Below are positions 19,687 to 62,304 of a stretch of 64,000 nt of DNA, in pieces. This DNA is from Couchioplanes caeruleus (lineage in GTDB: Bacteria > Actinomycetota > Actinomycetes > Mycobacteriales > Micromonosporaceae): NCBI RefSeq assembly GCF_023499255.1, contig NZ_CP092183.1, forward strand, positions 3,468,501 through 3,532,500, read 5' to 3'. The notes beneath the pieces are model-generated. The model searched no databases and was not told the DNA's origin. It worked only from the letters and a program-made list of their open reading frames with translations. The stretch's first letter is position 1; each line of letters opens with the position of its first letter. The position numbers and the translations under genes are program-made.

Positions 19687-19729
19687 ACGCTAGGCCGTTG
19701 ACGTGCGGCGCAGCTTGTTCCTCCTTGCG
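19687..19729 (-). promoter_or_regulatory. Shared-module promoter of the P450/GGPP synthase operon
   Basis: On the minus strand the 16-mer CGCAAGGAGGAACAAG (19714-19729) is followed by 21 nt and then TAGCGT (19687-19692). This is one of 13 copies of the same arrangement in the window. Confidence 0.7.
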
Positions 19730-19744
19730 GTTGTCGGGCGCCTG

Positions 19745-19786
19745 AGCAATGGGCGAGAAGTGCCCGGGCGGCCGCGCTGGAACGAT
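19745..19786 (+). promoter_or_regulatory. Shared-module promoter of the P450/terpene synthase operon
   Basis: AGCAATGGGCGAGAAG (19745-19760) is followed by 20 nt and AACGAT (19781-19786). It is divergent from and 15 bp away from the minus-strand copy. Confidence 0.7.
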
Positions 19787-19810
19787 CGGCCGCGGGGGAG
19801 GTGCCGATCG

Positions 19811-21007
19811 ATGACCAGTGACGTCGCGCTGCCCGCCGGCCGGCTCGTGTTCCCCTTCGCGCGTACCGACGTGCTGCGCCCCGATCCGATCTACCGGCGG
19901 CTGCGCGCCGAGCGTCCGGTCGCCCGCGTCACCATGGCCAACGGGGTCGGTGCGTACCTGGTCACCCGGTACGCCGACGTCCGCGTGGTGCTCGAGGACG
20001 CGCGGTTCAGCCGGGCCGCGCTGTCCCGGACGGCTCCCGGTGAGCTCGTCGCATACGCGCCGCCGGCCGTCCCGGCGTCCACTGAGGACGGCCACTCGAT
20101 GCCCTACGAGCTGGTGAACCGGTGGTTCACGGCGCGGGCGGTGGAACGGCTGCGCCCCGGGACCGCTCGGATCGCGGACGAGCTGCTGGACCGCCTCGTC
20201 GCCACGGGACCGCCGGCCGACCTCGTCGCCGCGTACACCGCGGTGCTGCCGATGACCGTGATCGGCGAGCTGGCCGGCATTCCCGCCGCCGACCGGCCGC
20301 GGCTGCGGGACCTGGCGCCGCTGGTGACCGTCGACTCGCCCGGCGCGCAGTCGCGGGCGGCGTCCGCCACGGTGTTCCAGTACTTCCGGACGGCCCTCGA
20401 GCAGCGCCGCCGCGTCCCCGCCGACGACCTGCTCGGCGCGCTGGTCACGGCCGGCCACCGCCGCGCCGGGATGCGCCCGGAACGGCTGGCCACCCTCGCC
20501 ATGCGGGCCTGCCTGCCGGCGATGCACTCCGTCTCGGTGGTGCTGAGCAAGGCCGTCCCGATCCTGTTGCGCCAGCCCGAGGTGTACGCGGCCGTACGCG
20601 TCGACGACGGTCTGACCGCGCCGGTGGTGGAGGAGCTGCTGCGGCTCACCACGCCCGCCTCCGCCGCGCTGCCCCGCCTCGCCCGCTGCGACGTGGAGCT
20701 CTCCGGGGGCACGGTGCCCGAAGGGGCGGTGGCCGTCGCGAGCCTGGAGTCGGCCAACAGCGACGAGGAGCACTACCCGGACCCGGAGCGCATCGTCGCC
20801 GGGCGCGGCGCCGCCGACCACACGACGTTCGGCCGGGGCAGCAACTTCTGCCTCGGCGCGGCCCTGGCCCGGATGGAGGTGCAGGTGGCGGTGGCGGCAC
20901 TCGCGCGGCGGCTGCCCGGGCTCGCGCTCGCCGTGCCGGAGAGCGAGCTGCCGGTGCGTACCGGGGTGATCGCGCCGGACGTGACGGCGCTCCCGGTGCG
21001 GTGGTGA
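19811..21007 (+). CDS. Cytochrome P450 with atypical I-helix
   Basis: This 398-residue bacterial P450 has a normal heme-binding loop (FGRGSNFCLG, Cys347) and an ExxR motif (EELLR), so heme binding is expected. The I-helix region reads CLPAMHSVS (about 234-242) where AGxET/DT is normal: the acidic residue and the following Thr are Ser and Val. This pair usually manages proton delivery to bound oxygen, so the enzyme may use substrate-assisted chemistry or do a non-hydroxylating reaction. It starts an operon with the class I and class II terpene cyclases, with which it overlaps end to end. GGGGGAGG lies upstream of ATG 19811. Confidence 0.85.
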   Translation: MTSDVALPAGRLVFPFARTDVLRPDPIYRRLRAERPVARVTMANGVGAYLVTRYADVRVVLEDARFSRAALSRTAPGELVAYAPPAVPASTEDGHSMPYELVNRWFTARAVERLRPGTARIADELLDRLVATGPPADLVAAYTAVLPMTVIGELAGIPAADRPRLRDLAPLVTVDSPGAQSRAASATVFQYFRTALEQRRRVPADDLLGALVTAGHRRAGMRPERLATLAMRACLPAMHSVSVVLSKAVPILLRQPEVYAAVRVDDGLTAPVVEELLRLTTPASAALPRLARCDVELSGGTVPEGAVAVASLESANSDEEHYPDPERIVAGRGAADHTTFGRGSNFCLGAALARMEVQVAVAALARRLPGLALAVPESELPVRTGVIAPDVTALPVRW

Positions 21008-21951
21008 GGACCGTGCCCGAGCCGTACTGCCCGTTCACCGTACGGGTGAGCCCGTACGCCGCCGACGCCGAGCAATTTCTGGGGCTCAGCCTCGCGGAGG
21101 CCGGTGCGGGACCGGAGCTCGGCACCATCGGCATCGGACGGCTGGCCGGGCTGGCGTACCCGTACGCGGCCCGGGAGGCGCTGCGCATCGCGGCGCTCTG
21201 GTTCGCGTTCTTCTGGCTTTTCGACGAGGCCTGGGCGGACCGGCTGCCCCGGCACGAGGCGCCCCGGCTGGGTGGCGTGCACCGGCGGGTGGCCTCGGTG
21301 CTCGCCGGGGGGCGTACCGGACCGGGCGACGACCCGGCGGTGCGGATGCTCGGCCTGCTCGGTGACGCGATCGCGGCGTGGCGGCCCGGCTGGGACAGCG
21401 CCGCCTTCCACCACGAGATCCTGCGCTACCTGCGCGCCACGCTCTGGGAGGTCGAGCTGCGCCGGCGCGGCGCGGTGCCGACGCTGGCGGAGTACCTGCG
21501 CATGCGCCCGCTCACCGCCGCCGTGCCGCCGTCGCGGGAGCTCGGCTTCCTCCTCTGCGACCTGCGGCTCGACCCGGTGCTGCGGACCCACCCGGCCGTG
21601 CAGCTCGCCGGCGCCGCCGCCGGGGACTACTCGTGCTGGGTCAACGACCTGTGCTCGCTGGAGACCGAGCGGGGCGCCACCATGAACCTCGTCGTCGTCG
21701 CCGAGCGGGAGTTCGGCTGGGCACGGCACCGGGCGGCGTCCTGGGTGGAGACCGTGGCCCGGGGTGAGGTCGAGACGTTCCGGTCGGTGCGCGCGAGCCT
21801 GCCGGCCACCGTGCTCGTCGGCATCGACCTGCCCGGCGCGGCCGCGGACCTGGAGCGGTACCTGAGCCACTACGAGGGCTGGTTCGTGGCCAGCGCGCGC
21901 TGGATGCCCCGCACCCCGCGGTACCGCCCCGTCGCCACGGTCGCGCCATGA
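21004..21951 (+). CDS. Class I terpene synthase
   Basis: The ~315-residue alpha-helical protein has the NSE metal-binding triad NDLCSLETE (N214, S218, E222) near the expected position, and a C-terminal segment ending PRTPRY that resembles the RY pair. The Asp-rich motif is unusual: FWLFDEAWAD (D74, E75, D79) instead of DDxxD/E. With the neighbouring class II cyclase it probably ionises a bicyclic diphosphate. GTG at 21004 overlaps the P450 stop (GTGA); GTG at 21013 is an alternative start. The downstream gene also overlaps (ATGA), so P450, class I and class II enzymes are made from one message. Confidence 0.85.
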   Translation: MRTVPEPYCPFTVRVSPYAADAEQFLGLSLAEAGAGPELGTIGIGRLAGLAYPYAAREALRIAALWFAFFWLFDEAWADRLPRHEAPRLGGVHRRVASVLAGGRTGPGDDPAVRMLGLLGDAIAAWRPGWDSAAFHHEILRYLRATLWEVELRRRGAVPTLAEYLRMRPLTAAVPPSRELGFLLCDLRLDPVLRTHPAVQLAGAAAGDYSCWVNDLCSLETERGATMNLVVVAEREFGWARHRAASWVETVARGEVETFRSVRASLPATVLVGIDLPGAAADLERYLSHYEGWFVASARWMPRTPRYRPVATVAP

Positions 21952-23456
21952 CCGCGCTGCTCGCGGACGTCGCCGGCGAGGTCGGCCGCCGGCTGCTCGC
22001 CATCCGGCACGCGCCGACCAGCGATCTCGGACCGTCCTGGTACGACACGGCCCAGGTGCTGCGGTTCCGGCTGCGGGAGCCCCGGCTGCTGCCCGACGAC
22101 CTCGCGTACGCCGGCCTCGTGTCCCTGCTCGAGGCGCAGCAGCCCGACGGTGGCTGGGGACCGCCGGAGATGTCCCGCGGCTACCGGACGGTTCCCACGC
22201 TCGCCGCCGCCACCATGCTGTGCGCCCTGGGCACGGCACAACCGCCGGAGCCGATGCGTACGCGCGCAGCCACGGCGACCCGCGCAGCGCTGACCTACCT
22301 CGCCGCCGACCCGCACGCCCTCGCCCCGGCGGCGCTGCCGGACCTGATCGCGGTGGAGTTCACCGTCCCCGCCCTGCTGGAGTCGCTGGTGCGGGCCCTC
22401 GCCCCGGACGACGCGGCGCTGCCCGGCGTACGCGTGGCGTTGAGCCTGCACCGCGACGGCCTGCGAGCGCTGCACCGGCACCGCGCCGCGGCCGCCTCCG
22501 GTGCTCGCCTGCCCGCGGCGGCCCACTACTCCCTGGAGGTCCTCGACGGGTTGCCGGCCGCCTTCGCCGCGCGACCGTTGGCGGACGGATCGCTCGCCTG
22601 TTCCCCGGCGGCCACCGCGGCGGCAGCGGCGTGGAGCGGCCGGCCGTCCCCGGCGGCGGCCGGCTACCTGACGGCCGAGGGCCGGCGGCTCGGTGGCGCC
22701 TGGCCCACCGTCGCGCCGGTGACCGTCTTCGAGGCGGCGCATCTGGCCGGGGTGGCGGACCGGGCCGGGCTGACGCTGCCCGCGGCGGTGAGCGCCGGCC
22801 TCGGCCCCTGGCTCGCCGCTCAGCTCGGCGAGGCCGGCTGTGGTGCCGGGCCCGCGCTGGCCCCGGACAGCGACGACACCGCCATCGTGCTGGTGGCCCT
22901 GCAGGCGCTGGGCCGCCCGGCGGACGTACGGCTGCTGGCGCCGTACGAGCACCCGACGCACTTCGCCACGTTCCCGGGCGAGCGGAGCGTGTCCTCCTCC
23001 ACCAACGCGCACGTCCTCGAGGCGCTGTGCGGCGCCCGGGACGCGGGGAGCCGCGACGCCTTCATCCGCCGGGGCATCGCGGTGGCCGGGACCTACCTGC
23101 TCGACGTGCAGCACCCCGACGGGCACTGGGACGACAAGTGGCACGCGTCGCCGTACTACGCCACGGCGAGCGCGGTGGCGGCGTTGCGCCGGTTACCGGA
23201 TCCGCGGTCGCGCGCCGCCGTCGCCCGCGCGGCCGACTGGGTCCGGGGCACCCGGCGATCCGACGGCGCCTGGGGCCGCTGGCGAGGCACCCGCGAGGAA
23301 ACGGCGTACGCGTGGCAGATCTCGGGTGCGGCGGCCGGGGCGCGGCTGCCCGAGACCCCCGGCGGGGCCGCGCTGTGGCACGCGAAGGAGCTGTACGAGC
23401 CCCGCCGCATCACCGGCACGCTCGCCCTGATCGCCACCGCCGGGGGACACCGCTGA
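21948..23456 (+). CDS. Class II (protonation-initiated) diterpene cyclase
   Basis: The 502-residue protein has a beta-gamma-domain architecture with QW-like repeats (EAQQPDGGWG near residue 63 and DVQHPDGHWDDKW near residue 388). The catalytic acid motif is DSDD at residues 307-310, the DxDD of copalyl diphosphate synthases. It lacks an appended class I domain, matching bacterial CPP synthases of about 500 residues. It should cyclise GGPP, presumably from the synthase at 17319-18335, to a bicyclic diphosphate used by the preceding class I enzyme. The ATG overlaps the upstream stop. Product stereochemistry cannot be deduced. Confidence 0.88.
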   Translation: MTALLADVAGEVGRRLLAIRHAPTSDLGPSWYDTAQVLRFRLREPRLLPDDLAYAGLVSLLEAQQPDGGWGPPEMSRGYRTVPTLAAATMLCALGTAQPPEPMRTRAATATRAALTYLAADPHALAPAALPDLIAVEFTVPALLESLVRALAPDDAALPGVRVALSLHRDGLRALHRHRAAAASGARLPAAAHYSLEVLDGLPAAFAARPLADGSLACSPAATAAAAAWSGRPSPAAAGYLTAEGRRLGGAWPTVAPVTVFEAAHLAGVADRAGLTLPAAVSAGLGPWLAAQLGEAGCGAGPALAPDSDDTAIVLVALQALGRPADVRLLAPYEHPTHFATFPGERSVSSSTNAHVLEALCGARDAGSRDAFIRRGIAVAGTYLLDVQHPDGHWDDKWHASPYYATASAVAALRRLPDPRSRAAVARAADWVRGTRRSDGAWGRWRGTREETAYAWQISGAAAGARLPETPGGAALWHAKELYEPRRITGTLALIATAGGHR

Positions 23457-23459
23457 AAC

Positions 23460-23501
23460 CGCAAGCGGCAGGAAAGAAAGCGCAGGTCACGCCGGTAGGT
23501 T
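23460..23501 (+). promoter_or_regulatory. Shared-module promoter of P450 at 23559
   Basis: CGCAAGCGGCAGGAAA (23460-23475), 20 nt, then TAGGTT (23496-23501), immediately after the class II cyclase stop codon. It gives the third P450 its own promoter of the common type. Confidence 0.65.
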
Positions 23502-23558
23502 CGGCCCATCGGCGGGTCCGGCCGCGCGTCGGGCGGCCCGCGCTGAAGGGAGCGGCAC

Positions 23559-24797: not shown

Positions 24798-24801
24798 GAC
24801 G

Positions 24802-24846: not shown

Positions 24847-24871
24847 GCCGGGGTCTCCGGCGGGCGCGTCG

Positions 24872-25947: not shown

Positions 25948-25990
25948 ACACTAGCCACGCGACCCGCGATCAGCTTTCTCCCGGCTTGCG
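25948..25990 (-). promoter_or_regulatory. Shared-module promoter of the SnoaL pair
   Basis: Minus strand: CGCAAGCCGGGAGAAA (25975-25990), 21 nt, then TAGTGT (25948-25953). Confidence 0.72.
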
Positions 25991-25999: not shown

Positions 26000-26042
26000 C
26001 GCAATCTGGGAGTAGCCGGTACGGCGGGCCCGGCCCTACCGT
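26000..26042 (+). promoter_or_regulatory. Shared-module promoter of P450 at 26050
   Basis: CGCAATCTGGGAGTAG (26000-26015), 21 nt, then TACCGT (26037-26042). The hexamer ends 7 nt before the ATG, so the transcript is probably leaderless. Confidence 0.72.
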
Positions 26043-29441: not shown

Positions 29442-29484
29442 ACCCTAGGAGCGAACGGTGCCCGCGGTCTTCTCCCCGGTTGCG
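29442..29484 (-). promoter_or_regulatory. Shared-module promoter of the flavin oxidoreductase
   Basis: Minus strand: CGCAACCGGGGAGAAG (29469-29484), 21 nt, then TAGGGT (29442-29447), 45 nt before the start codon. Confidence 0.75.
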
Positions 29485-29870: not shown

Positions 29871-29912
29871 CGCAACAGGCGAGAAGGTGCGCGGCGCGGT
29901 GACTGCCACGAT
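29871..29912 (+). promoter_or_regulatory. Shared-module promoter of the F420-dependent oxidoreductase
   Basis: CGCAACAGGCGAGAAG (29871-29886), 20 nt, then CACGAT (29907-29912), 6 nt before the ATG, again suggesting a leaderless transcript. The ACGATCG around the hexamer is identical to that of the promoter at 19745. Confidence 0.72.
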
Positions 29913-31840: not shown

Positions 31841-31939
31841 CACTGCTCCTTGCGCTCGTACGGTCAGCGTCCACCCAGCTTCGTGCCCGCCGGCCCGGCG
31901 CGGCTGCTCGTGCCTTGCTGTTTCCGCCATCGCGCTTTT

Positions 31940-31981
31940 CGCAAGGTGGGAGTAGGCGCGGACGCGGCCACGCACTTGGAT
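31940..31981 (+). promoter_or_regulatory. Shared-module promoter of the SnoaL-VOC genes at 32.0 kb
   Basis: CGCAAGGTGGGAGTAG (31940-31955), 20 nt, then TTGGAT (31976-31981). The 16-mer is very close to the one at 26000; the -10 match is weaker than in other copies. Confidence 0.6.
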
Positions 31982-32852: not shown

Positions 32853-32973
32853 CGGCGGCCAAGAGAGCAACGGACGAGAAGGAGGCCGCCGCCGGTCGCG
32901 GCGAGCATGGCGGGGTACGGCCCGCCGGGCGTCCCGGGCACACCGGGCCGCCCGTTCCCGGAGGTCTGCTGCG

Positions 32974-33927
32974 ATGCTCACCGGCGCCCGGATCACCTCG
33001 CTCATCATGTACGCGCACGACGTGGCCGAGTCCGCCGACCACTACCACCGGCGGCTCGGCCTTCCCGTGCTGGAGACCACGCCGGAGCGGGTACGGCTCG
33101 ACGCCGGGCTCCTCGAGATCTGGCTCGAACCGGCCGCGCGGCACGGCGTACGCCTCTTCGGCCGCCGCGACGACTCCTCGGACGTGGTGTTCTTGACCGA
33201 GGACCTCGAGGCGACGCGGGCCGCGCTGGAGTCCCGTGGCGTGACCTTCGAGCGGCGGCGCAGCTACGAGGTCGGGCTGGTGACCGACTTCTACGACCCC
33301 AACGGGCACCGGCTGATGCTCTACCAGCCGTCGGCGGAGTCGCTGACCTGGCCGAGCGCGCCGAAGGTCCGCGAGGTGTGGCGCCGCCGCGGCCGGGGCA
33401 CCGACCGGGCCATCGGGCCGGCGTCCGCTGCGGCGCAGGGACCGCCGGAGCTCACCGGCCTGTCCGGCAACCCGCTGATCTACCTGTTCATGTTCGAGAA
33501 CGACCAGATGGCGGCGCTCGGCTTCTACCGTGACGCGCTCGGGCTCGCCCTGCTGGAACGCGTGCACTGCTGCAACCAGGACTGCGACGCCGAGATCGAG
33601 GGCATCGGCAAGTACGACGGCGGCGGTGTGCTGCTGTCCACCCACCACATGCACGAGCGCACCATGGTCTTCGACGACCTGGGGCGGCCGTACTCGCCGC
33701 GGGTGTTCACGCCGGCGCACGGGCAGGGGATCGCGCCCGTGTTCGAGGTCGGCGACATCGAGGCGACGGTCACGGCGCTGCGGGCCAACGGCGTCGGCGT
33801 CGCCGGCGTGACCGGGCACGACGCGGGCCTGTTCGCGCGTTTCGAGGACCCGTTCGGCCACCCGTTCTTCCTGCTGCAGCCCGAGCCGCTCGCCCGCGCC
33901 GGCGCCGGCGAATCGGCACTCAGGTGA
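32974..33927 (+). CDS. Tandem-domain VOC protein
   Basis: The 317-residue product contains two VOC units: residues ~5-125 (YAHDVAESADHYHRRLGLPVLE to NGHRLMLYQPSAESLTW) and ~165-305 (NPLIYLFMFENDQMAALGFYRDALGL to FGHPFFLLQPEP). The second unit has an inserted CCNQDCD cluster before the KYDGGGVLLST strand. Where metal-dependent VOC enzymes have a Glu ligand in the last strand, this protein has hydrophobic residues, so binding rather than catalysis is more likely. GGAGG lies upstream of ATG 32974. The stop codon is the first base of the next shared promoter module. Confidence 0.85.
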   Translation: MLTGARITSLIMYAHDVAESADHYHRRLGLPVLETTPERVRLDAGLLEIWLEPAARHGVRLFGRRDDSSDVVFLTEDLEATRAALESRGVTFERRRSYEVGLVTDFYDPNGHRLMLYQPSAESLTWPSAPKVREVWRRRGRGTDRAIGPASAAAQGPPELTGLSGNPLIYLFMFENDQMAALGFYRDALGLALLERVHCCNQDCDAEIEGIGKYDGGGVLLSTHHMHERTMVFDDLGRPYSPRVFTPAHGQGIAPVFEVGDIEATVTALRANGVGVAGVTGHDAGLFARFEDPFGHPFFLLQPEPLARAGAGESALR

Positions 33928-33968
33928 GCAAATCACGAGAAGGCCCGCCGCCCCGGCGCCGTCAGAAT
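33927..33968 (+). promoter_or_regulatory. Shared-module promoter of the operon starting at 34028
   Basis: AGCAAATCACGAGAAG (33927-33942), 20 nt, then CAGAAT (33963-33968). It begins on the last base of the VOC stop codon. Confidence 0.65.
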
Positions 33969-36983: not shown

Positions 36984-37020
36984 TCCGTGCCTCACCGCAC
37001 CCGAGAAGGGAAGTCCCACC

Positions 37021-37983: not shown

Positions 37984-37984
37984 G

Positions 37985-39433
37985 GTGGAGCTCGCCACCG
38001 CGGCCGTCCGGGACCTCGCCGGCGCCGTGCACGGCGCGGTGCTGCGCGCCGGCGACGAGGGCTACGACGAGGCCTGCCGGCTCTGGAACGCCGGCGCGGG
38101 CGGGCGCCGGCCCCTGGTGGTGGTGCGCTGCGCCGACGCGGCGGACGTCGCGACGGCGATCCGGTACGCGGCCCGCCACGAGCTGGAGCTGTCGGTGCGC
38201 AGCACGGGGCACAACGTCACCGGCCGGGCGGTGAGCGACGGCGGTGTCACCGTCGACCTGTCGGGCCTGCGCGACGTCCGCGTGGACCCCGGCCGGCGCC
38301 TCGCCTCCGTGCAGCCGGGAGTGCTCTGGGGCGAGCTCGACGCGCGGACGCAGGAGGCCGGGCTCGCCACCACGGGCGGGCGGATCTCGACGACCGGCGT
38401 GGCCGGGCTGACCCTCGGTGGCGGCTTCGGCTGGCTCATGCGCCGGCACGGCCTGGCCGCGGACAACCTGCTGGCGGCCGACGTGGTGACGGCGGACGGC
38501 ACCGGGATGCGGGCGGCCGAGGACTGCGAGCCCGGCCTGTTCTGGGCGTTGCGCGGCGGCGGCGGCAACTTCGGCGTGGTCACCTCGCTCGAGTTCCGCC
38601 TGCATCCGGTGGGACCCGTGGTCACCGGTGGCGCGGTCTTCTACGCGGCGGAGCAGGCGGCCCGGGTGCTGCGCTGGTACCGGGATTTCCTCGCCGGAGC
38701 CCCGGACGATCTCTCCGTCCAGTGCAACCTGTTGCGCCTGCCGCCCGCGCCGTTCGTGCCGCCGGAGCTGCGCGGCCGGCCCGCGGTCGCGCTCGCCGTG
38801 TGCCACCTCGGCACGGTGGAACGGGCGGGCCGCGATCTGGCTGCGCTGCGGGAGCTCGGCGAGCCGCTGCTGCGCCGGCTGGGCCCGATGCGCTACACGT
38901 CCCTGCAGCGGCTCTACGACATGGCGGGCCGGTTCGGGTCCTTCGTGTACGGCCGCTCCGGCTACCTGCCCGAGCTGACCGACGCCGCCGTCGACGCGCT
39001 GACCGCGCCCGGCTGTGCCGTACCGGGGGCCGGCTCCATCGTGATGATCTCTCCGCTGGGCGGCGCGGTCGCCCGGGTGGGGGAGCTCGACACCGCGGTG
39101 GGGCACCGGGGTGCCGCCGTCAGCTGCTCGGTGGACGCGGTCTGGCAGCGGCCCGGAGCCGCCGCCGCCCACGTGGCCTGGGCCGACCGGGTCTGGGCGG
39201 GGCTACGGCCGCACTGCTCGGGCGCGTACGTCAACGAGCTGGGCGACGAGGGCCCGGAGCGGGTGCGCGAGGCGTACCACCCGGTGGCCTGGCAGCGGCT
39301 GCGCGTGCTGAAGACGCACTACGACCCCGGCAACGTGTTCCGGCTCAACCAGAACATCCCGCCGGCGGCCGGGAATGCCGGGTCCCGGACCGTGTCGCCG
39401 CCGGCCGGGGACGCCGGGTCCCGCAAGCCGTGA
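37985..39433 (+). CDS. Berberine-bridge-type FAD-linked oxidase
   Basis: The 482-residue enzyme has the PCMH-type FAD domain (RRPLVVVRCADAADVATAIRYAARH, SVRSTGHNVTGRAV, GLTLGGGFGWLMRRHG) and the BBE C-terminal motif near YHPVAWQRLRVLKTHYDPGNVFRLNQNI. The His in RSTGHN is the expected 8-alpha-histidyl FAD anchor. The second anchor Cys of bicovalent enzymes is absent (GGRISTTGVAG), so FAD should be attached by His only. Such enzymes catalyse oxidative ring closure or alcohol oxidation in polyketide tailoring. The C-terminus carries a short duplicated tail (AAGNAGSRTVSPPAGDAGSR). GTG 37985 lies one base after the VOC stop. Confidence 0.88.
   Translation: MELATAAVRDLAGAVHGAVLRAGDEGYDEACRLWNAGAGGRRPLVVVRCADAADVATAIRYAARHELELSVRSTGHNVTGRAVSDGGVTVDLSGLRDVRVDPGRRLASVQPGVLWGELDARTQEAGLATTGGRISTTGVAGLTLGGGFGWLMRRHGLAADNLLAADVVTADGTGMRAAEDCEPGLFWALRGGGGNFGVVTSLEFRLHPVGPVVTGGAVFYAAEQAARVLRWYRDFLAGAPDDLSVQCNLLRLPPAPFVPPELRGRPAVALAVCHLGTVERAGRDLAALRELGEPLLRRLGPMRYTSLQRLYDMAGRFGSFVYGRSGYLPELTDAAVDALTAPGCAVPGAGSIVMISPLGGAVARVGELDTAVGHRGAAVSCSVDAVWQRPGAAAAHVAWADRVWAGLRPHCSGAYVNELGDEGPERVREAYHPVAWQRLRVLKTHYDPGNVFRLNQNIPPAAGNAGSRTVSPPAGDAGSRKP
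39361..39425 (+). repeat. Imperfect direct repeat at the 3' end of the BBE gene
   Basis: Two copies of a ~28-nt unit (39361-39388 and ~39397-39425), each containing a GCCGG-rich start and GCCGGGTCCCG end, encode the duplicated AGNAGSR/AGDAGSR tail. The second copy runs directly into the shared promoter module of the next gene. Confidence 0.6.
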
Positions 39434-39464
39434 GAAGACCGCCGCGGCCGGTCCGGCGGATGCT
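39422..39464 (+). promoter_or_regulatory. Shared-module promoter of the acyl-CoA ligase operon
   Basis: CGCAAGCCGTGAGAAG (39422-39437) overlaps the last codons of the BBE gene, including its stop; 21 nt later GATGCT (39459-39464). The 16-mer is a full match to the consensus. Confidence 0.68.
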
Positions 39465-43433: not shown

Positions 43434-44237
43434 ATGCTGTCCGCGTCCCGCCTCGCCCGCATCGTGCTGCCCGTACCGGACGTCGCCGCGGCCGCGGAGT
43501 TCTACGAACGGCGGCTGGGGCTGCCCCGCGGCGGCGAGGCACCGGGCGAGGCGCACCTGCTCGCCGGGGGCGTCGAGCTGTGGCTGCGCCCCGGGGAAGG
43601 CGCGGCCGGGCCGTGCGACCTGGTCTTCCTCACCGACGACCTGCCCGGCGCCTGCCACGCGTTGCGCAGCCGTGGCGTGCCGCCGGGTACGCCCCACCGG
43701 CAGGCCCTCGGCACGCTCGTGAGCCTGCACGGCCCCGGAGGGCACCGGCTGAGGTTGTACGAGCCCTCGGCGGCGGCGCTCGCCGGCCCGGCCGGGCCCG
43801 TCATCCGCGACGTGCGGCGGGTCCACGGCGCCGGCCGGCCGAACCCCATGCCGCTGCTGGCCGTGGTGGTCCCGGAGACGGACCGGCGGGCCTCCCGCGA
43901 GCTGTACTACTCCGGGCTGGGGCTGGCCCTGCTCGGCCGGTCGCCGTGCGGGGAACCGGGGCGCGCGGCGGCCACGCTGGACGCGTACGACGCCGGGTGG
44001 GTCCTGCTGGTGACGCGGCACGGGCCCGTACCGGAGCGGGCCCCGGGCGTCGCCTTCGTCTACGAGGTGACCGGCGCCGACCGGCTGTGCGCGCGGCTCT
44101 CCGGGCGGCCCGTGCCGGTGGCACCCGGGATGGGACAGCTGGTCCGGCCGGCGGATCCCGGCGCGCCGGCCGTCTATCTGTGCGAGGACTGCACGCCGGA
44201 GCCCGGTGAGCCGGCGCTCCCCGCAGCCAGGTGGTGA
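43434..44237 (+). CDS. Tandem-domain VOC protein
   Basis: The 267-residue protein has a clear first VOC unit (LARIVLPVPDVAAAAEFYERRLGLPRGG to GGHRLRLYEPSAAALAGPAG) and a degenerate second unit (MPLLAVVVPETDRRASRELYYSGLGLALLG to PAVYLCEDCTPEPG). It keeps the family tail LYEPSAAAL. GGAGAAG precedes ATG 43434 and the gene follows PIG-L by 10 nt, ending the operon. Its last 64 bp overlap the convergent AraC-type gene. It probably binds the product or an intermediate; the metal Glu is missing in the last strand of unit one. Confidence 0.82.
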   Translation: MLSASRLARIVLPVPDVAAAAEFYERRLGLPRGGEAPGEAHLLAGGVELWLRPGEGAAGPCDLVFLTDDLPGACHALRSRGVPPGTPHRQALGTLVSLHGPGGHRLRLYEPSAAALAGPAGPVIRDVRRVHGAGRPNPMPLLAVVVPETDRRASRELYYSGLGLALLGRSPCGEPGRAAATLDAYDAGWVLLVTRHGPVPERAPGVAFVYEVTGADRLCARLSGRPVPVAPGMGQLVRPADPGAPAVYLCEDCTPEPGEPALPAARW

Positions 44238-45058
44238 CCGCCCGCGGCCGCGCCCATCAGCAGGGGCAGCGCGAGGATGACCGGCGGGTCCGTGTCGCGG
44301 CGCGGGCGCAGCCGCAGCTCCACCTCGGGCGGATCGCCCGCCGGGCCGCCGATCTCCACCGGCACCGGCGCCGCGGCCACGTAGCAGCCGTGGTCCAGGT
44401 CGGAGGCCATCATGGCGTCCGCGAGCGTCACCGACTCGTCGAAGCACACCGCCATCGGATGGAACAGGCCGTCCGGCAGGTCGCCGAGGCGTACGGTCGC
44501 CGGCAGCTCGGTGATCGCGCACGCCGCGGGGCGCCCCTGCGGGATCCCCGACGGGAACAGGCCGACGGCGACCAGGGCGCCCCGGTCGGGGCCGCCCGTC
44601 ACGGTGACGGTCACCTGCGGCGTGACCGGCTCGGGCGGGCGTGGCGACGCCTCCAGCGCCTCGTGCAGGGCGATGTCCGCGCAGTCACCGACGACCCGGC
44701 GGAAGCGGCCGGGCGGCACCCCCACGACCCGGGCGAACTGCGAGGTGAAGGTGCCGAGGCTCGTGTAGCCGATGCGCATGCAGATGTCGGTGACGCTCTC
44801 CGAGCCGTACGCCAGCATCCGCTTCGCCTCCGCCATCCGCCACGCGGCGAGGAACCGGGCCGGCGTCGCGTCGGTCACCCGCTGGAAGATCCGGTGGAAG
44901 TGGAACGGGCTGAGCCGCGCCGCCTGCGCCAGGGTCTGCAGGGGCAGGTCGTCGCCGAAGCGTTCGCGCATCGTGGCGATCGAGCGCAGGACCGCGTCCG
45001 TCCAGGCCTCGGCCGTCGCGGGGCCCGGCGGCCGGTTCGGCCGGAATGGGACAGTCAT
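44174..45058 (-). CDS. AraC-family transcriptional regulator with N-terminal HTH
   Basis: A 294-residue regulator whose AraC double helix-turn-helix is at the N-terminus (residues ~15-115): LQTLAQAARLSPFHFHRIFQRVTDATPARFL and VTDICMRIGYTSLGTFTSQFARVVGVPPGRFRR. The C-terminal ~170 residues are an effector-like domain similar in sequence to that of the AraC gene at 46545 (FPSGIPQGRPAAC..., FHPMAVCFDESVTLADAMM). The ATG overlaps the stop of the UbiB-like kinase (ATGA), so they are co-translated. It likely controls part of the locus. Confidence 0.88.
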   Translation of the reverse strand: MTVPFRPNRPPGPATAEAWTDAVLRSIATMRERFGDDLPLQTLAQAARLSPFHFHRIFQRVTDATPARFLAAWRMAEAKRMLAYGSESVTDICMRIGYTSLGTFTSQFARVVGVPPGRFRRVVGDCADIALHEALEASPRPPEPVTPQVTVTVTGGPDRGALVAVGLFPSGIPQGRPAACAITELPATVRLGDLPDGLFHPMAVCFDESVTLADAMMASDLDHGCYVAAAPVPVEIGGPAGDPPEVELRLRPRRDTDPPVILALPLLMGAAAGGHHLAAGSAGSPGSGVQSSHR

Positions 45059-46347
45059 CGCGCCTCCTCGGCACTTTCCTTGATCTGCAGCGCCTTGAGC
45101 AGCGTCGGCACGGCCTCGCGCTGGAAGTCGACGTCCACGTCCAGGTCGAGGACCATGCCCTCCAGGGTCAGCAGCGAGAGCAGGGGGAACACGAACTCCG
45201 GCGCCGCGGTGATCCCGTGGGTGCGCTGCAGGGTGAACAGCCGGTTGGCGAACGATGCGAGGCGGAACTGGCCCGCCCGGCGCCGGTGCGTCGAGGCGAT
45301 GAGGTCGCGGATCCCGCGCCGGAAGCCGTCCAGGTCGCTGTGCGGGGGAACGGGCGCGGCGCTGGCGAGCACCACGTCCGCGCAGGCGTCGCCGTTGCCG
45401 AGGACCATGTGGAGGAAGAACTGCGCGAACTGTTTGCGTACGCGGGGGGTGAGCTCCACGACGAAGCCCGCGTCGACGATGACGACCTCGCCGGAGCGCC
45501 GCAGGTAGAGGTTGCCGGGGTGCAGGTCGCAGTGCACGAGGCCGTCCGCGAAGAGCATGCGGTAGATCGCCCGCAGCACGTTGCGCACGATCGTGCGGCG
45601 CCGGGCCGGCTCGAACGCGCCGGGGTCGAAGCGTTCCAGCCCGTCCAGGAACTCCATCACCAGCACGCCGTCGCCGCACGCCGGCGGCACCGGGGCGGGG
45701 ACGCGGACGAGACCGTCGAGGTTGCGGCGCAGCCGGTCCAGCATCCACGCCTCGCGGCGCAGATCGAGCTGGTTCAGCACCGCGGGCGCGACCTGCTCGA
45801 CCATCCGGCGCATCGGCGTGCCCCGCAGGCCCGGCAGCCGCTGGGCCAGGTCCGCGCCGAGGGCCAGCAGCCGGAAGTCCGCGCGCATCCGGCGGCCGAT
45901 GCCGGGGCGGCGTACCTTCACCGCCACGTCCCGCCCGTCGTGCAGCCGTGCCCGGTAGACGCAGGCGATGCTGCCGCTGGCCACCGGCGTACGGTCCAGC
46001 GCGGCGAACGGCCAGTCGCGCCCCGGCGGGTACGCGGCCGCCAGCGCGCGTCGGGCGGCCGGGAACGGCATGGGCTCCATCCGGTCGGTCAGCCGCCCGA
46101 GCGGGGCACACCAGGACGGTGGCAGCAGATCCGCCCGGCTGCTCATGATCTGGCCGCCCTTGACGAAGCTCGGGCCCAGCCGGACCAGGCCGGCGGTGAG
46201 GATCTCGGCCGGCGTGCGGCCCGGGGTGGCCCGGCCGGCGCGCGCGGCGGCGCTGCGCAGCCCCGCCGCGGTCAGGCACCGCGTCCCGGTGACCGTCCAC
46301 GTCGCCGCCCGCGCCACCAGGTACGGCCAGTCGGCCGTCCGTCCCAT
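45055..46347 (-). CDS. ABC1/AarF/UbiB-family atypical kinase
   Basis: The 430-residue protein has the UbiB signature KGGQIMSSRADLLPP (KxGQ), the Ala-rich ASGSIACVYRARLHDGRDVAVKVRRPG nucleotide loop with catalytic Lys, the ExD region, and the catalytic block LVHCDLHPGNLYLRRSGEVVIVDAGF. These proteins support biosynthesis or extraction of lipophilic compounds such as quinones. GGGGAGG precedes ATG 46347. It is coupled to an AraC regulator. Its appearance in a natural-product locus is unusual; a role handling a lipophilic polyene or terpenoid intermediate is speculative. Confidence 0.88.
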   Translation of the reverse strand: MGRTADWPYLVARAATWTVTGTRCLTAAGLRSAAARAGRATPGRTPAEILTAGLVRLGPSFVKGGQIMSSRADLLPPSWCAPLGRLTDRMEPMPFPAARRALAAAYPPGRDWPFAALDRTPVASGSIACVYRARLHDGRDVAVKVRRPGIGRRMRADFRLLALGADLAQRLPGLRGTPMRRMVEQVAPAVLNQLDLRREAWMLDRLRRNLDGLVRVPAPVPPACGDGVLVMEFLDGLERFDPGAFEPARRRTIVRNVLRAIYRMLFADGLVHCDLHPGNLYLRRSGEVVIVDAGFVVELTPRVRKQFAQFFLHMVLGNGDACADVVLASAAPVPPHSDLDGFRRGIRDLIASTHRRRAGQFRLASFANRLFTLQRTHGITAAPEFVFPLLSLLTLEGMVLDLDVDVDFQREAVPTLLKALQIKESAEEAR

Positions 46348-46544
46348 GCCGGCCTCCCCGTGCTCGACGGTGCTCGGCTCTGCTGGCCCGATTCAATGCG
46401 GGCCCCCGGCGCGCGGCAAGGTCGCGGCGGCAGGACGCCAACCTCGAAGACCCGTTCGCGGGCACGTCAAGAACTCGTCAAGCCCGGCGGGGCAGACTCG
46501 GCAGCGCACGCCCGAACGACGACGGGGGAGGCGTACGGACGGGG

Positions 46545-47342
46545 ATGGCGACGGCATACCGGGATGCGAGATCGGATCCGACACGCGCGGCGCACATCGG
46601 CGCCGTGGTGCGCGCGGTCGCCACGATGCGCGCCGGCCTGTCGCGACCGCAGCCGCTGACCGAGCTCGCACGCGCGGCGATGTTCGACCCGTACCACTTC
46701 CACAAGATCTTCCGTGAGCTGACCGCGCTCACCCCCGGCCGCTTCCTGGCGGTGCTGCGGATGGCGGAGGCGCGGCGGCTCCTGCTGCACTCGGCGCTGC
46801 CGGTCGCGGACGTCGGCGCCCGCGTCGGCTACCGCAGCGCGGGTACGTTCTCGCGGCAGTTCACCCGTCTGGTGGACGTCCCGCCGGCCCGGTTCCGGGG
46901 ACTCGCCCGGGCCCTGGCCGGCGAGCGCGCGGGCAGCCGCCCGGTGCTGCCCCCCGCCGAGCCCGGCCCCTCGCCGATGATGGCGCTGTCGGTGGCACCC
47001 GGCCCCGGCTCGCTGATCTTCCGGTGCCTGGCCGGCGAGGGGAGCGTCTGCCCGGGCAGCGGTTGCTGGACCGTGGCCACCGGGCGGGCGCTGGTGCCCC
47101 TGCCCTGGCCGTCCGCCCCCGGCGCGTACGCGGCATTCGTGCTGGTCGTGCCCGTGGGGGTGCGCCTCGCCGACGCGCTCGTGGACGACCTGCCCGGCAG
47201 TTACCTGATCGGGCGCGCGCCGATGGAGCTGTCCCGCGACCGGCGCCCGGTGACGGTCCGCGCCGCCCTGCGCCGGCCGGAGCCGACCGACGCGCCGATC
47301 GCCGCACTCACCGCCCCGCGGTGGCCGACCGGGTACGGATGA
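46545..47342 (+). CDS. AraC-family transcriptional regulator, paralogue of 44174-45058
   Basis: The 265-residue protein has an N-terminal AraC HTH (LTELARAAMFDPYHFHKIFRELTALTPGRFLAVLRMAEARRLLLH and VADVGARVGYRSAGTFSRQFTRLVDVPPARFRG) and a shorter C-terminal domain homologous to that of the other AraC gene (MALSVAPGPGSLIF, FVLVVPVGVRLADALVDDLPG). GGGGGAGG precedes ATG 46545. It is divergent from the UbiB/AraC operon and upstream of the SARP gene in the same direction. The pair may be sensors for related ligands. Confidence 0.88.
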   Translation: MATAYRDARSDPTRAAHIGAVVRAVATMRAGLSRPQPLTELARAAMFDPYHFHKIFRELTALTPGRFLAVLRMAEARRLLLHSALPVADVGARVGYRSAGTFSRQFTRLVDVPPARFRGLARALAGERAGSRPVLPPAEPGPSPMMALSVAPGPGSLIFRCLAGEGSVCPGSGCWTVATGRALVPLPWPSAPGAYAAFVLVVPVGVRLADALVDDLPGSYLIGRAPMELSRDRRPVTVRAALRRPEPTDAPIAALTAPRWPTGYG

Positions 47343-59303: not shown

Positions 59304-59387
59304 GCGCGCCTCCCTGGGGTGCGGAAATGCGGGAAGCCTCGCAAACCCCGGTTGAGCACTTCTGTACTCGGCTATACGCCGGCTGGA

Positions 59388-59429
59388 CCCAAACGCCGAG
59401 AAGAATGTGCCGTTGCCGCGTCGTACCCT
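59388..59429 (+). promoter_or_regulatory. Shared-module promoter of the MerR-type regulator
   Basis: CCCAAACGCCGAGAAG (59388-59403), 20 nt, then TACCCT (59424-59429). It lies in the divergent unbL/MerR region and suggests that the MerR gene is part of the same regulon, or autoregulated. Confidence 0.65.
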
Positions 59430-59469
59430 GAGGTCGCGGCGCCTCCCGGCACCAGCTGGCGGTGAGAGC

Positions 59470-60120
59470 ATGCGGATCGGTGAACTGTCGCGGCGGAGCG
59501 GCATCGTGATTCCGACCATCAAGTACTACCTGCGCACGGGCCTTCTCCCGCCGGGGGTGCCGAGGGCGCGCAACCAGGCCGACTACGGGCCCGGCCACCT
59601 GCGCCGGCTGAACGTGGTCGACGCCCTGCTCCGGGTCGGCGGCATGAGCGTTCCCGGGGTGCACGCCGTGCTCGCCGCGATCGACGACACCGCGACGTCC
59701 CCGGCCGGCCTGATCACCGCCGTCGAGGAGGCTGTCTCGGCGCGGCACCCCCGCGGCGTGGACGAGCGGTACGCAACCGCCGGCGCCCGGGTCGCCGCAA
59801 CGCTGGACCGGCAGGGCTGGCACCCACCGGGTACGGCCCTGCGGGAGCGGCTGACCGAGGCGTGCGCGGTGGCGGACGTCCTCGACCTCACCGACCTGTG
59901 GCCGGTGCTCGACCGGTACGCGGCGACCGCGGCCGAGGCCGCCGGGAACGACCTGGCCGTGCTGTGGACGTACGCGACCCGCAGGCAGCTGGACCGCGAC
60001 CCGGCGGACCCGGTGCTGCGGGAGGCCGTCGTCGTGGTGGCCGTGCTCGGCGCGGTCGTGCAGTCCGTCATGACCGGCATCGCGCGGCACGAGGCGCTGC
60101 GGCAGCTGCTCGCGGAGTAG
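59470..60120 (+). CDS. MerR-family transcriptional regulator
   Basis: The 216-residue protein begins with a MerR winged helix (MRIGELSRRSGIVIPTIKYYLRTGLLPPG, then YGPGHLRRLNVVDALLRVGGMSV). The C-terminal ~130 residues are helical and lack the Cys/His metal-binding loop of metal sensors. They are a separate ligand-sensing type I cannot name. It is divergent from the enediyne core operon and convergent with the aminotransferase gene, ending 9 nt from it. It is a good candidate regulator of the core operon, since MerR proteins often act on the divergent promoter. Confidence 0.88.
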   Translation: MRIGELSRRSGIVIPTIKYYLRTGLLPPGVPRARNQADYGPGHLRRLNVVDALLRVGGMSVPGVHAVLAAIDDTATSPAGLITAVEEAVSARHPRGVDERYATAGARVAATLDRQGWHPPGTALRERLTEACAVADVLDLTDLWPVLDRYAATAAEAAGNDLAVLWTYATRRQLDRDPADPVLREAVVVVAVLGAVVQSVMTGIARHEALRQLLAE

Positions 60121-60128
60121 CCGGCCGG

Positions 60129-61490
60129 TCAGGGCCCGAGGAGCTCGTGGAAGAGCGCGATGCGGCGGCCGGAGAGCGGCACGGTGAGGCGCAGCTGACC
60201 CGGCCGGGACGGCGTGAGGCCGCGGATGCCCCGGTCGGCGAGGAGGCGCCCCTGCGAGCCGTCCCCGTCGTGGATCACGACCCACGGGACGTCCTCGTGC
60301 CCGGGTACGACGGTCAGCCCGGCCTCGGCCAGGCGCCGGGTGAACGGCGGCTTCACCGCCCGGATCCGGGCCCGCAGGCCCTTCAGCACGTCCCCCGCGG
60401 CCAGCATGCCCAGCGCGGCCCGCAGCGCGAGTTCGCTGATCTGCAGCGGCGTCATCAGCTCGCGGACCCGGGCCTCCAGGCCGGGCGAGGCGACCGCGAA
60501 CCCCGCCCGCAGGCCACCCCACGAGTACGCCTTCGTGAACCCGCGCAGCACCACGAGGTTGCCGGCGCCGGCGGCCACCGTGACCGCGCTGCCACCCGGC
60601 CCGAGGTACGGCGCGGCGCTCTCGTCGACCACGAGGGCCGGCACGGCGTGGGACGCGGCCACGATCTCGTCGAGCGCGTACGGCCGCCCGCTGAACCCGG
60701 GCTGGTCGAGAAGCAGCAGATCGGGACGGGTACGGGCGATCTCGCCGAGCAGCGGCGCGGCCGGCTCGGACATCACGTGGACCGTCGCGCCCCGGCGCAC
60801 CGCCAGCGCCGGCAGGTCCGGGTGGGCGTACGCGGGGGTGAGCACGACGCCTCCCTCGGCCAGGTCGGCGAGGTCGCGCAGCAGGCCGCTCACGCCCGCG
60901 CCGAAGAACAGCCGTTCCGCCGGGACGGTACGGCCGAAGAAGCGGCTGACCACCGGCGCACCGCGGCGGCTGCCGAACGGATCGTCCACCGGGTAGTGCC
61001 CGGCCGCATCGGCGTCGAAAGCCCCGTCCGAGGCGAGGTCCGCCCACACCTCCGCGGGCGACGGGTCCATCCACTCCGCCTCGTCGTCGGCGTACCGCAG
61101 GTCCAGGCGGATGCCGGGCATCTCTTCGCCCCAGGCGGTCACCGCCAACGCCTCCGGCGGCGCCGGCAGTGGACGCGCGACGAGGCGTACGCCCTCGCCG
61201 GCGGGCTCGGTGTGCTCCACGGCGTAGCCGGCGCAGCGGACCAGCGCCGCGAGGTCCGCGGGGCACCGGAGCCGCTGCTCGACGATCAGGACGCCCGTGG
61301 GGCTCATCGCGCGCCGGATGTCGCCGAGCAGGCGCCGGTGGGCGGCCTCGCGACCCGGTGGGGGCCAGTCCGCGCAGACGACCGTGCCGGCACCCGCGAG
61401 GTCCGGCGCCGTACCGCCGGGGCCGGCCCGGACGACGCGGCCGCTGCCGTGGCGCGCCACGAACGCGCCCAGGTCGTCGTCCGTGCTCAC
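60129..61490 (-). CDS. Class I/II PLP aminotransferase fused to a partial methyltransferase-like N-terminus
   Basis: The 453-residue protein carries a HisC/class I aminotransferase domain from about residue 110: FFGAGVSGLLRDLADL, VVDESAAPYLGPGG, and the PLP-lysine block VVLRGFTKAYSWGGLRAG with Lys320. The first ~108 residues (VVCADWPPPG, RRLLGDIRRAMSPTGVLIVE, LAALVRCAGYAVEHTEPAGEG) look like the second half of a Rossmann methyltransferase and lack the GxGxG SAM loop. The GTG at 61490 overlaps the VOC stop (GTGA), so the whole fusion is translated. It could install an amino group or use an amino-acid-like substrate. Confidence 0.82.
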   Translation of the reverse strand: MSTDDDLGAFVARHGSGRVVRAGPGGTAPDLAGAGTVVCADWPPPGREAAHRRLLGDIRRAMSPTGVLIVEQRLRCPADLAALVRCAGYAVEHTEPAGEGVRLVARPLPAPPEALAVTAWGEEMPGIRLDLRYADDEAEWMDPSPAEVWADLASDGAFDADAAGHYPVDDPFGSRRGAPVVSRFFGRTVPAERLFFGAGVSGLLRDLADLAEGGVVLTPAYAHPDLPALAVRRGATVHVMSEPAAPLLGEIARTRPDLLLLDQPGFSGRPYALDEIVAASHAVPALVVDESAAPYLGPGGSAVTVAAGAGNLVVLRGFTKAYSWGGLRAGFAVASPGLEARVRELMTPLQISELALRAALGMLAAGDVLKGLRARIRAVKPPFTRRLAEAGLTVVPGHEDVPWVVIHDGDGSQGRLLADRGIRGLTPSRPGQLRLTVPLSGRRIALFHELLGP

Positions 61491-62176
61491 CGGGAACCGG
61501 CCAGGATCGCGCGGACCGCCCGCCCGCTGTCCCACCGCAGCGCCGCCTCGGACGGCTCGTACAGGCACAGCCGGTGGCCGGACGGGTCGGTGAAGCGGAT
61601 CGTCCACCCGATCTCCTTCGAGCCCACGTCGCGTCCCGAGTAGGTCAGCCCCCGGCCGGCGAGCTCGTCGCGGAGCTTCCGGATGTCGCCGGTGTGGAAC
61701 ACGAGCAGAGAGGTGTCGTGCCGGCCGGACGGCCCCGGTTCGAGCACGAGCGGCACGCCGGCGGTGCGGACCGTGGCGGTGGTCGCCGACCGGTCGCACT
61801 CCAGGCCGAGCACGTCCCGGTAGAACGCCACCGAGGCGCCGAGGTCGTCCGTCCGCAGGCGGAGCCCGGCCACCGGCTGCCCGGGGACGCCGAGCAGATA
61901 GTGGTGGCCGTGCGGGTCGGTCCGCGGCTCGGTACCCCCGGCGAACACGATGGTCAGGCCTTCGCCGGCGGCGGGAGCGAAGCGGCTCGCGGGGGAGAGG
62001 TTGAGCGCGAGGATCACGGTGCCGGCGTCGTACTTCACCACGCCGTGGCGGTGCCGCGGGTCGGGGTCGGTCTCCAGCACCGGCAGGCCCGCGTCCGACT
62101 CCAGGAACCGGCGCTGCGCGGCGAGATCGTGGGCCTCGAGGAAGACGTACAGCAGGGGATGGTCGCGCAGGGACAC
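61487..62176 (-). CDS. Tandem-domain VOC protein
   Basis: The 229-residue protein has two VOC units: HPLLYVFLEAHDLAAQRRFLESDAGLPVLE with HGVVKYDAGTVILALNLS, and GLRLRTDDLGASVAFYRDVLGLECD ending SGHRLCLYEPSEAALRWDSG. It is closest in layout to the protein at 36201, with a shortened first unit, and carries the same LYEPS-AALRW tail. AGGAGGAG lies before GTG 62176. It is first in an operon with the aminotransferase and is under a shared-module promoter on the far side of the enediyne core. Confidence 0.86.
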   Translation of the reverse strand: MSLRDHPLLYVFLEAHDLAAQRRFLESDAGLPVLETDPDPRHRHGVVKYDAGTVILALNLSPASRFAPAAGEGLTIVFAGGTEPRTDPHGHHYLLGVPGQPVAGLRLRTDDLGASVAFYRDVLGLECDRSATTATVRTAGVPLVLEPGPSGRHDTSLLVFHTGDIRKLRDELAGRGLTYSGRDVGSKEIGWTIRFTDPSGHRLCLYEPSEAALRWDSGRAVRAILAGSR

Positions 62177-62204
62177 CGGCTCCTCCTCGTGGGCGTACGC
62201 CGGG

Positions 62205-62247
62205 AGCGTAGGAACGCCGGACCGGCGGCCGCTTCTCCGACGTTGCG
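62205..62247 (-). promoter_or_regulatory. Shared-module promoter of the VOC-aminotransferase operon
   Basis: Minus strand: CGCAACGTCGGAGAAG (62232-62247), 21 nt, then TACGCT (62205-62210), 29 nt before the GTG. Confidence 0.75.
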
Positions 62248-62261
62248 AGGATCGGGGTTTG

Positions 62262-62304
62262 CGCAAGCGGGAAGAAAAGCGGCGGCCGGGTGCGTGCATA
62301 GCGT
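62262..62304 (+). promoter_or_regulatory. Shared-module promoter of the His-rich membrane protein operon
   Basis: CGCAAGCGGGAAGAAA (62262-62277), 21 nt, then TAGCGT (62299-62304), 35 nt before the ATG. It is divergent from the minus-strand copy 15 bp away, the same spacing as between the two copies at 19.7 kb. Confidence 0.72.

What the first reader, a model, noticed from the sequence alone, without database searches (positions are those of the whole stretch)
19687..62304. One promoter module repeated 13 times links the terpene block, the tailoring block and both flanks of the enediyne core
By eye I find (C/A)GCAA-N5-GAGAAG (allowing 1-4 mismatches) followed after 20 or 21 nt by a TAnnnT-like hexamer. 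Motif starts are 19714(-), 19745(+), 23460(+), 25975(-), 26000(+), 29469(-), 29871(+), 31940(+), 33927(+), 39422(+), 59388(+), 62232(-) and 62262(+). Eight of the 13 hexamers fit TAnnnT exactly. Every copy precedes a start codon in the right orientation: three P450 genes or operons of the terpene block, SnoaL genes, a P450, the flavin reductase, the F420 enzyme, the unknown-protein operon, the acyl-CoA ligase, MerR, VOC-aminotransferase and the His-rich membrane protein. GCAA and GAAG half-sites are 11 bp apart, the period seen for SARP activators, and a SARP gene is present. No -35 is recognisable, fitting activator-dependent promoters.
Basis: seen in the sequence. Interest (0 to 1): 0.92.

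Follow-up and report, generated by a model that had tools for sequence, protein, structure and literature searches.

The report
AraC-type promoter box of enediyne clusters
Fifteen promoters in this enediyne antibiotic gene cluster carry the same short DNA switch, and the same switch turns up in many other enediyne clusters, mostly where a particular AraC-type regulator gene is linked to them, so that protein probably turns these genes on together.

Summary
All 13 sites are present, and two were missed (32866+, 31904-). In 15 of 15 the best TAnnnT-like hexamer lies 20 or 21 nt after the box. In 1.14 Mb of unselected own-genome DNA no composite reaches the weakest of the 15; scored leave-one-out, 14 of 15 still exceed the best background hit. 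The SARP reading is not supported for the box: its halves are not repeats, and SARP sites end 8 bp from the -10. GCAA-N5-RAGAAG, centred near -41, has the layout of an AraC/XylS class II site, and the cluster encodes two AraC proteins. In 54 dereplicated enediyne loci of other genomes the spaced box occurs in 18 of 25 with a linked AraC1-family gene and 2 of 29 without (p = 6.5e-7); SARP shows no association (p = 1). A different, SARP-like element precedes the enediyne core operon and AraC2. Best reading: SARP drives the core operon and AraC2; an AraC activator, most likely AraC1, drives tailoring, terpene and membrane-protein units. Binding and activation are inferred, not shown.

The parts
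19687..19729 (-). AraC box 19714-19729 + -10 TAGCGT 19687-19692; promoter of P450 (start probably 19657) and GGPP-synthase-like gene
   Evidence: the N. flavum cluster has 15 matching sites
19745..19786 (+). AraC box 19745-19760 + -10 AACGAT; P450 19811, terpene synthase 21001, class II cyclase-like 21948
23460..23501 (+). AraC box + -10 TAGGTT; P450 23559
25948..25990 (-). AraC box 25975-25990 + -10 TAGTGT; SnoaL genes 25411 (start probably 25905) and 24872
26000..26042 (+). AraC box + -10 TACCGT; P450 26050, predicted leaderless
29442..29484 (-). AraC box 29469-29484 + -10 TAGGGT; old-yellow-enzyme-like reductase 27279-29396
29871..29912 (+). AraC box + -10 CACGAT; luciferase-like enzyme 29919, predicted leaderless
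31877..31919 (-).
   Evidence: same site in N. flavum
31940..31981 (+). AraC box + -10 TTGGAT; SnoaL 32022 and unknown 32484
32866..32908 (+).
   Evidence: same site in N. flavum
33927..33968 (+). AraC box + -10 CAGAAT; operon 34028-39433 (unknown, DAO, VOC, VOC, BBE)
39422..39464 (+). AraC box + -10 GATGCT; acyl-CoA ligase 39494, CoA-transferase, PIG-L
59388..59429 (+). AraC box + -10 TACCCT; MerR gene 59470
62205..62247 (-). AraC box 62232-62247 + -10 TACGCT; VOC 61487-62176 and aminotransferase 60129
62262..62304 (+). AraC box + -10 TAGCGT; unknown 171-aa protein 62339 and CopC-like 62851
44174..45058 (-). AraC1: N-terminal AraC-type DNA-binding domain (about residues 20-126) plus C-terminal beta-sandwich; proposed reader of the box
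45055..46347 (-). ABC1/AarF kinase-like gene beside AraC1
46605..47342 (+). AraC2: second AraC protein, HTH 52% identical to AraC1 over 98 residues
47486..49366 (+). SARP (Trans_reg_C + BTAD + ATPase); proposed reader of the core element, not of the box
59335..59366 (-). SARP-like element of the core operon: TACAGAA-N4-TCAACCG-N8-GAGGCT
   Evidence: found in the window and 7 of 7 related E3 upstream regions aligned
46467..46498 (+). SARP-like element before AraC2: TCAAGAA-N4-TCAAGCC-N8-CAGACT
   Evidence: 25.9 bits; next hit in the window outside the core site 10.3, best in 1.14 Mb background 17.2

Best explanation
The repeated module is a class II activator promoter read by an AraC/XylS-family activator of the cluster, most likely AraC1 (44174-45058). 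The box VGCAA-N5-RAGAAG is a single two-part AraC site: one helix-turn-helix is proposed to read GCAA and the other RAGAAG, about one helical turn downstream. It spans about -49 to -34, stands in for a -35 element, and lets RNA polymerase use a weak -10 20-21 nt further down. The 15 copies tie the terpene, tailoring, ligase, VOC/aminotransferase, MerR and membrane-protein units into one regulon; no further copy was found in the 20 kb left and 60 kb right of the window. The core operon (E3-E5-E4-PKS-TE) lacks the box here and carries a SARP-like element that also precedes AraC2, suggesting two tiers: SARP to core and AraC2, AraC to tailoring and terpene. Shown: the boxes, spacing, cluster specificity, conservation and co-occurrence with AraC genes. 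Inferred: DNA binding, activation, the positions relative to transcription starts, which of the two AraC proteins binds, and any ligand of the C-terminal domain.
For: 15 boxes, 15 of 15 with the best -10 at 20/21; 0 comparable composites in 1.14 Mb of the same genome. N. flavum (G170) has 15 sites; six further clusters with AraC1 at about 60% identity have 8, 8, 8, 9, 5 and 3. PWM trained on the window alone and applied to other genomes: 164 box hits, 81 with the best -10 at 20/21; mirrored PWM 21 hits, 1 at 20/21; 12 column-permuted PWMs on half the loci gave 3-22 hits against 82 real. Loci chosen by E5, not by AraC: 18 of 25 with a linked AraC1-family gene have the spaced box, 2 of 29 without (p = 6.5e-7; 19/26 vs 1/28 after relinking L159 through). 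In the 11 of 48 searched genomes with no full-length AraC1-family hit the E5 loci have 0 sites. Regions around AraC genes away from the E5 loci: 18 of 20 have a site, mirror 0 (refined PWM). A group of 9 target proteins is represented by an AraC protein, i.e. likely autoregulation. Layout agrees with XylS TGCA-N6-GGTA and the RamA class II site near -41. G190 has 3 boxes with AraC1 but no AraC2 detected in 40 kb. In tiancimycin an AraC regulator, TnmR7, activates tailoring units by qRT-PCR.
Against: No binding or expression data. Seven of 25 AraC-linked loci show no site within 10 kb of E5; five of 20 regions at AraC homologues of about 40% (L104, L105, L108, L109, L111) show none even with the refined PWM, and L203 and L213 show none. 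L140 has a site without a linked AraC gene found. Linkage beyond 10 kb was assigned by hand; counting only AraC genes within the locus gives 11/15 vs 9/39, p = 0.0012. Dereplication was by E5 at 80% identity, with no tree-aware test. MerR also shows an association (5/6 vs 15/48, p = 0.02). The PWM assumes 74% G+C, so sites in low-G+C genomes are easier by chance: Herpetosiphon (L195) has 2 sites and 1 mirror hit with the refined PWM. AraC1 and AraC2 cannot be separated inside the window. Several -10s in the window are weak (GAAGCT, GATGCT, GAGCAT).
Confidence: 0.8

Rival explanations
1. The SARP (47486-49366) reads the 15 boxes as 11-bp-spaced half-sites.
For: A SARP gene is in the cluster and GCAA and GAAG are 11 bp apart.
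Against: The halves are not alike; SARP sites are direct repeats with the 3' copy 8 bp from the -10, and the afs box is centred at -29.5; here 20-21 nt and about -41. Boxes occur in 17 of 47 loci without a SARP, 3 of 7 with one (p = 1). A better SARP-like element is at the core operon and AraC2.
Confidence: 0.04
2. AraC2 (46605-47342), alone or together with AraC1, reads the boxes; AraC1 has another task.
For: AraC2 has a related HTH (52% over 98 residues) and sits behind a SARP-like element, which would make a cascade SARP to AraC2 to tailoring genes.
Against: G190 has 3 boxes with AraC1 but no AraC2 detected in 40 kb; several box-bearing loci, such as L147, L149, L152 and L153, hold a single full-length family member within the locus.
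Confidence: 0.12
3. The MerR protein (59470-60120) reads the boxes.
For: One box precedes merR; MerR shows an association with the box (5/6 vs 15/48, p = 0.02).
Against: The box is not a palindrome and lies upstream of, not inside, the -35/-10 spacer; 15 of 48 loci without this MerR have boxes.
Confidence: 0.02
4. The box is the -35 element of an alternative sigma factor rather than an activator site.
For: It has a fixed distance to a -10-like hexamer and no separate -35 is visible.
Against: It is a 16-bp two-part site 20-21 nt from the -10, longer than usual sigma spacers (recalled); Pfam named no sigma factor among the 40 window proteins scanned.
Confidence: 0.02

Closest known systems
TnmR7 / UcmR7 / SgcR2, AraC-family regulators of enediyne clusters (PMC9464397: abstract, passages and section 6 seen; PMC8210685 and PMC2657911: passages seen)
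   Same: AraC-family regulator in an enediyne cluster; the tiancimycin cluster also has ABC1/AarF kinases; TnmR7 is deduced to activate tnmDFGH, tnmM1M2 and tnmNOPR2 from qRT-PCR; UcmR7 homologues are said to be conserved among several enediyne clusters.
   Different: No DNA site is given for them in what I saw: TnmR7 was insoluble and not tested by EMSA. Whether AraC1 is their orthologue was not tested, as their sequences were not at hand.
XylS/Pm and MarA/SoxS/Rob/RamA class II promoters (PMC5481539, PMC8811837: passages seen)
   Same: Two-part AraC site, TGCA-N6-GGTA (XylS) or CACT-7X-AAA (RamA at micF, near -41).
   Different: Different letters; one box only (no second copy 21 bp upstream), unlike XylS; DNA-binding domain N-terminal and fused to a beta-sandwich.
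SARP promoters, afs box of AfsR (PMC10936776: passages seen)
   Same: Activator-dependent promoters of antibiotic clusters; the core-operon element found here has 11-bp direct repeats 8 bp from a -10-like hexamer.
   Different: The 15-copy box itself has none of the repeat and distance features.

Membership tests
SARP target promoter | Direct repeats of one short sequence at 11 or 22 bp | tested here: not met
   MGCAA and RAGAAG differ; no third copy conserved
SARP target promoter | 3' repeat 8 bp from the -10 | tested here: not met
   20 or 21 nt in 15 of 15; rule from PMC10936776
SARP target promoter | Presence follows a SARP gene | tested here: not met
   3 of 7 with SARP, 17 of 47 without, p = 1
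AraC/XylS class II activator promoter | Non-palindromic two-part box with halves about one helical turn apart | tested here: met
   GCAA and GAAG 11 bp apart, spacer hardly conserved
AraC/XylS class II activator promoter | Box overlaps the -35, centre near -41 | tested here: met
   Inferred from the -10 hexamer, box about -49 to -34; transcription starts not mapped
AraC/XylS class II activator promoter | AraC-family protein encoded with the sites | tested here: met
   AraC1 and AraC2; 18/25 vs 2/29 loci
AraC/XylS class II activator promoter | The protein binds the box and activates transcription | not testable with these tools
   Needs bench work
AraC family protein (AraC1) | Two HTH motifs of the AraC DNA-binding domain | tested here: met
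TnmR7/UcmR7/SgcR2 orthologue group | Sequence orthology to these proteins | not tested
MerR target promoter | Palindrome inside a 19-20 bp spacer (recalled) | tested here: not met
   Box is non-palindromic and lies upstream of the spacer
SARP target promoter (core-operon element only) | 11-bp direct repeats with the 3' copy 8 bp from the -10 | tested here: met
   Window and 7 of 7 related E3 upstream regions; also before AraC2
SARP target promoter (core-operon element only) | Presence follows a SARP gene | tested here: inconclusive
   6 of 6 loci scoring 22 bits or more among L101-L220 have a SARP, most of them used in training; L125 and the Amycolatopsis loci have a SARP-type hit without the element

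The most novel reading that the evidence does not exclude
The box is the binding site of an enediyne-associated AraC regulator family found across actinobacteria, with a few cases in Gammaproteobacteria and Chloroflexota: an old, transferable regulatory code of enediyne clusters. In the Actinoplanes-like clade a SARP tier took over the core operon and AraC2, while a diterpene-like block was wired into the AraC tier by gaining three boxes. The C-terminal beta-sandwich domain may sense a pathway intermediate.
Probability: 0.45. Interest if true: 0.8.

Novelty: new member of a known kind. Interest (0 to 1): 0.7.

Why it matters
AraC regulators have been reported in enediyne clusters, but I found no DNA site for them in the papers or passages seen. 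A defined box with a fixed -10 distance would make the AraC regulon of an enediyne cluster readable from sequence, help set cluster borders, tell which units should depend on the AraC protein, and suggest how a diterpene-like block and an enediyne came under one switch.
Full report
Observation. The 13 sites are present as described. A PWM built on 14 (the 13 plus 32866(+)) showed one more, 31904(-), at 14.2 bits; the next hit has 10.6. With at most one mismatch to MGCAAN5RAGAAR the window has 15 matches against 1.14 expected from 100 dinucleotide shuffles.

Genome specificity. G000 is a single 8,421,026-base contig and the window is 3468501-3532500. The exact consensus MGCAAN5RAGAAR occurs 13 times, 9 in the window; the other 4 have no -10-like hexamer at 20/21. 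With up to one mismatch the genome has 224 places against 138 for the reversed pattern. In 57 unselected 20-kb stretches (1.14 Mb, including the 20 kb left and 60 kb right of the window) no site reaches the composite score of the weakest window site (best 17.0 against 18.9); one reaches its box score, without a -10. Those window scores include the sites themselves. Leave-one-out box scores are 13.0-20.6; with the -10 score added, 14 of 15 stay above 17.0 and the weakest, 31904, is about 16.3.

Genes under the boxes: P450/GGPP synthase-like; P450/terpene synthase/class II cyclase-like; P450; two SnoaL; P450; old-yellow-enzyme-like; luciferase-like; O-methyltransferase; SnoaL; VOC; the 34028-39433 operon; acyl-CoA ligase/CoA-transferase/PIG-L; MerR; VOC/aminotransferase; 171-aa unknown/CopC-like. 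Predicted 5' leaders are 0-60 nt if the P450 starts at 19657 and the SnoaL at 25905; two are predicted leaderless.

Comparative test. AraC1 relatives were found in 178 of 300 genomes of the family at E 1e-15, a threshold that also admits partial matches. Of 20 regions at AraC homologues of about 40% identity, 12 have a composite of 17 or more; with a PWM refined on these and the E5 loci, hence partly circular, 15 of 20 have a site, and L104, L105, L108, L109 and L111 have none. The second marker was the enediyne gene E5: 80 named loci (the best 80 of 360), not chosen by AraC. The window-trained composite (19 or more) is found in 30 of 80 and its mirror in 0 of 80, including Salinispora, Lentzea, Nonomuraea, Nocardiopsis, Streptomyces lilacinus, Luteibacter, a Lysobacterales MAG and Herpetosiphon. 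The cases in lower-G+C genomes are weaker, since the PWM assumes 74% G+C; with the refined PWM Herpetosiphon has 2 sites and 1 mirror hit. After grouping E5 at 80% identity and dropping one short locus, 54 loci remain: AraC1-family gene linked 18/25, not linked 2/29 (p = 6.5e-7); SARP 3/7 vs 17/47 (p = 1); MerR 5/6 vs 15/48 (p = 0.02). One of the two exceptions, L159, has an AraC1 homologue on a contig of its length (P0041, 542,180 bases), giving 19/26 vs 1/28. Links beyond 10 kb were assigned by hand from coordinates and contig lengths; with only AraC genes inside the locus it is 11/15 vs 9/39, p = 0.0012 (counted by hand, test). Regions fetched around AraC genes lying away from the E5 loci: 18 of 20 have a site with the refined PWM, mirror 0; several of them are second enediyne clusters.

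Spacing as independent evidence. With the box PWM alone, trained on the window and applied elsewhere (N. flavum excluded), 81 of 164 hits have their best -10 at 20/21, where 2 of 40 positions would be chance; mirrored PWM 1 of 21.

Targets elsewhere: of 217 sites (refined PWM, near-identical species not removed), 199 have a coding frame starting 30-270 nt downstream (random positions 287 of 400 by this loose measure). The largest groups, named by one representative each, are the group holding the 171-aa protein (21), E3/DUF1702 (21), PKS (13), VOC (12), O-methyltransferase (11), E5 (10), SnoaL (9 and 9) and AraC (9). So in other clusters the box also serves core genes.

A second element. The core operon of the window clade lacks the box. 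Eight E3 upstream regions share TMMAGAR-N4-TCAAC and, 8 bp after the second heptamer, a hexamer ending in CT. The same element precedes AraC2 (46467-46498, 25.9 bits; best in 1.14 Mb background 17.2). Before AraC2 orthologues it scores 23.7 (G170), 18.3 (G220), 13.5 (G126) and 8.5 (G152), the last two below the best background score and borne out by position alone; it is not among the top two hits of the G056 stretch. L126, not used in training, has it 1.1 kb upstream of its E5 gene (22.5) and, weakly (14.8), just before its AraC gene. The 6 of 6 loci at 22 bits or more among L101-L220 have a SARP, but L125 and the Amycolatopsis loci have a SARP-type hit without the element. The layout fits SARP rules and suggests two tiers.

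Literature. In tiancimycin, tnmR7 and tnmR4 are AraC-type and tnmR2/R3 ABC1 kinases; TnmR7 is deduced to activate tnmDFGH, tnmM1M2 and tnmNOPR2 from qRT-PCR, but the protein was insoluble and no site is given in what I saw (PMC9464397, abstract, passages and section 6). UcmR7 homologues are called conserved among several enediyne clusters (PMC8210685, passages). SgcR3 binds the sgcR1R2 promoter (PMC2657911, passages). Searches listed no paper that I saw to describe an AraC site in an enediyne cluster; most subscription journals are not held.

Verdict. The promoter module is real and cluster-specific; an AraC-type class II box is the best reading (0.8); the SARP reading is unlikely for the box but plausible for the core operon.

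Noticed in passing
window 59335-59366 (-) and 46467-46498 (+): SARP-like element with 11-bp direct repeats, 8 bp from a -10-like hexamer, before the enediyne core operon and before AraC2; also in related loci and L126.
   Followed up: yes
window 17319-24797: A diterpene-like block (polyprenyl synthase, class I and class II cyclase-like genes, three P450s) lies beside an enediyne core under the same box; of the seven related clusters only N. flavum (G170) has it, and 19 of 394 genomes searched in the class have the class II cyclase-like gene at E 1e-30.
   Followed up: partly
window 44174-45058: The AraC1 C-terminal half is predicted as a beta-sandwich with weak matches to transthyretin and other beta-sandwiches; role unknown.
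   Followed up: partly
window 62339-62854: The 171-aa protein without Pfam match is 59-78% identical in distant enediyne clusters, and its group is one of the two largest box target groups (21 sites).
   Followed up: partly
window 26050 and 29919: Two genes are predicted to start within 1 nt of the transcription start, i.e. leaderless mRNAs.
   Followed up: no
L202, L205, L207: Genomes whose E5 locus (L128, L131, L135) lacked AraC1-family gene and box carry a second enediyne cluster on another contig that has both.
   Followed up: partly
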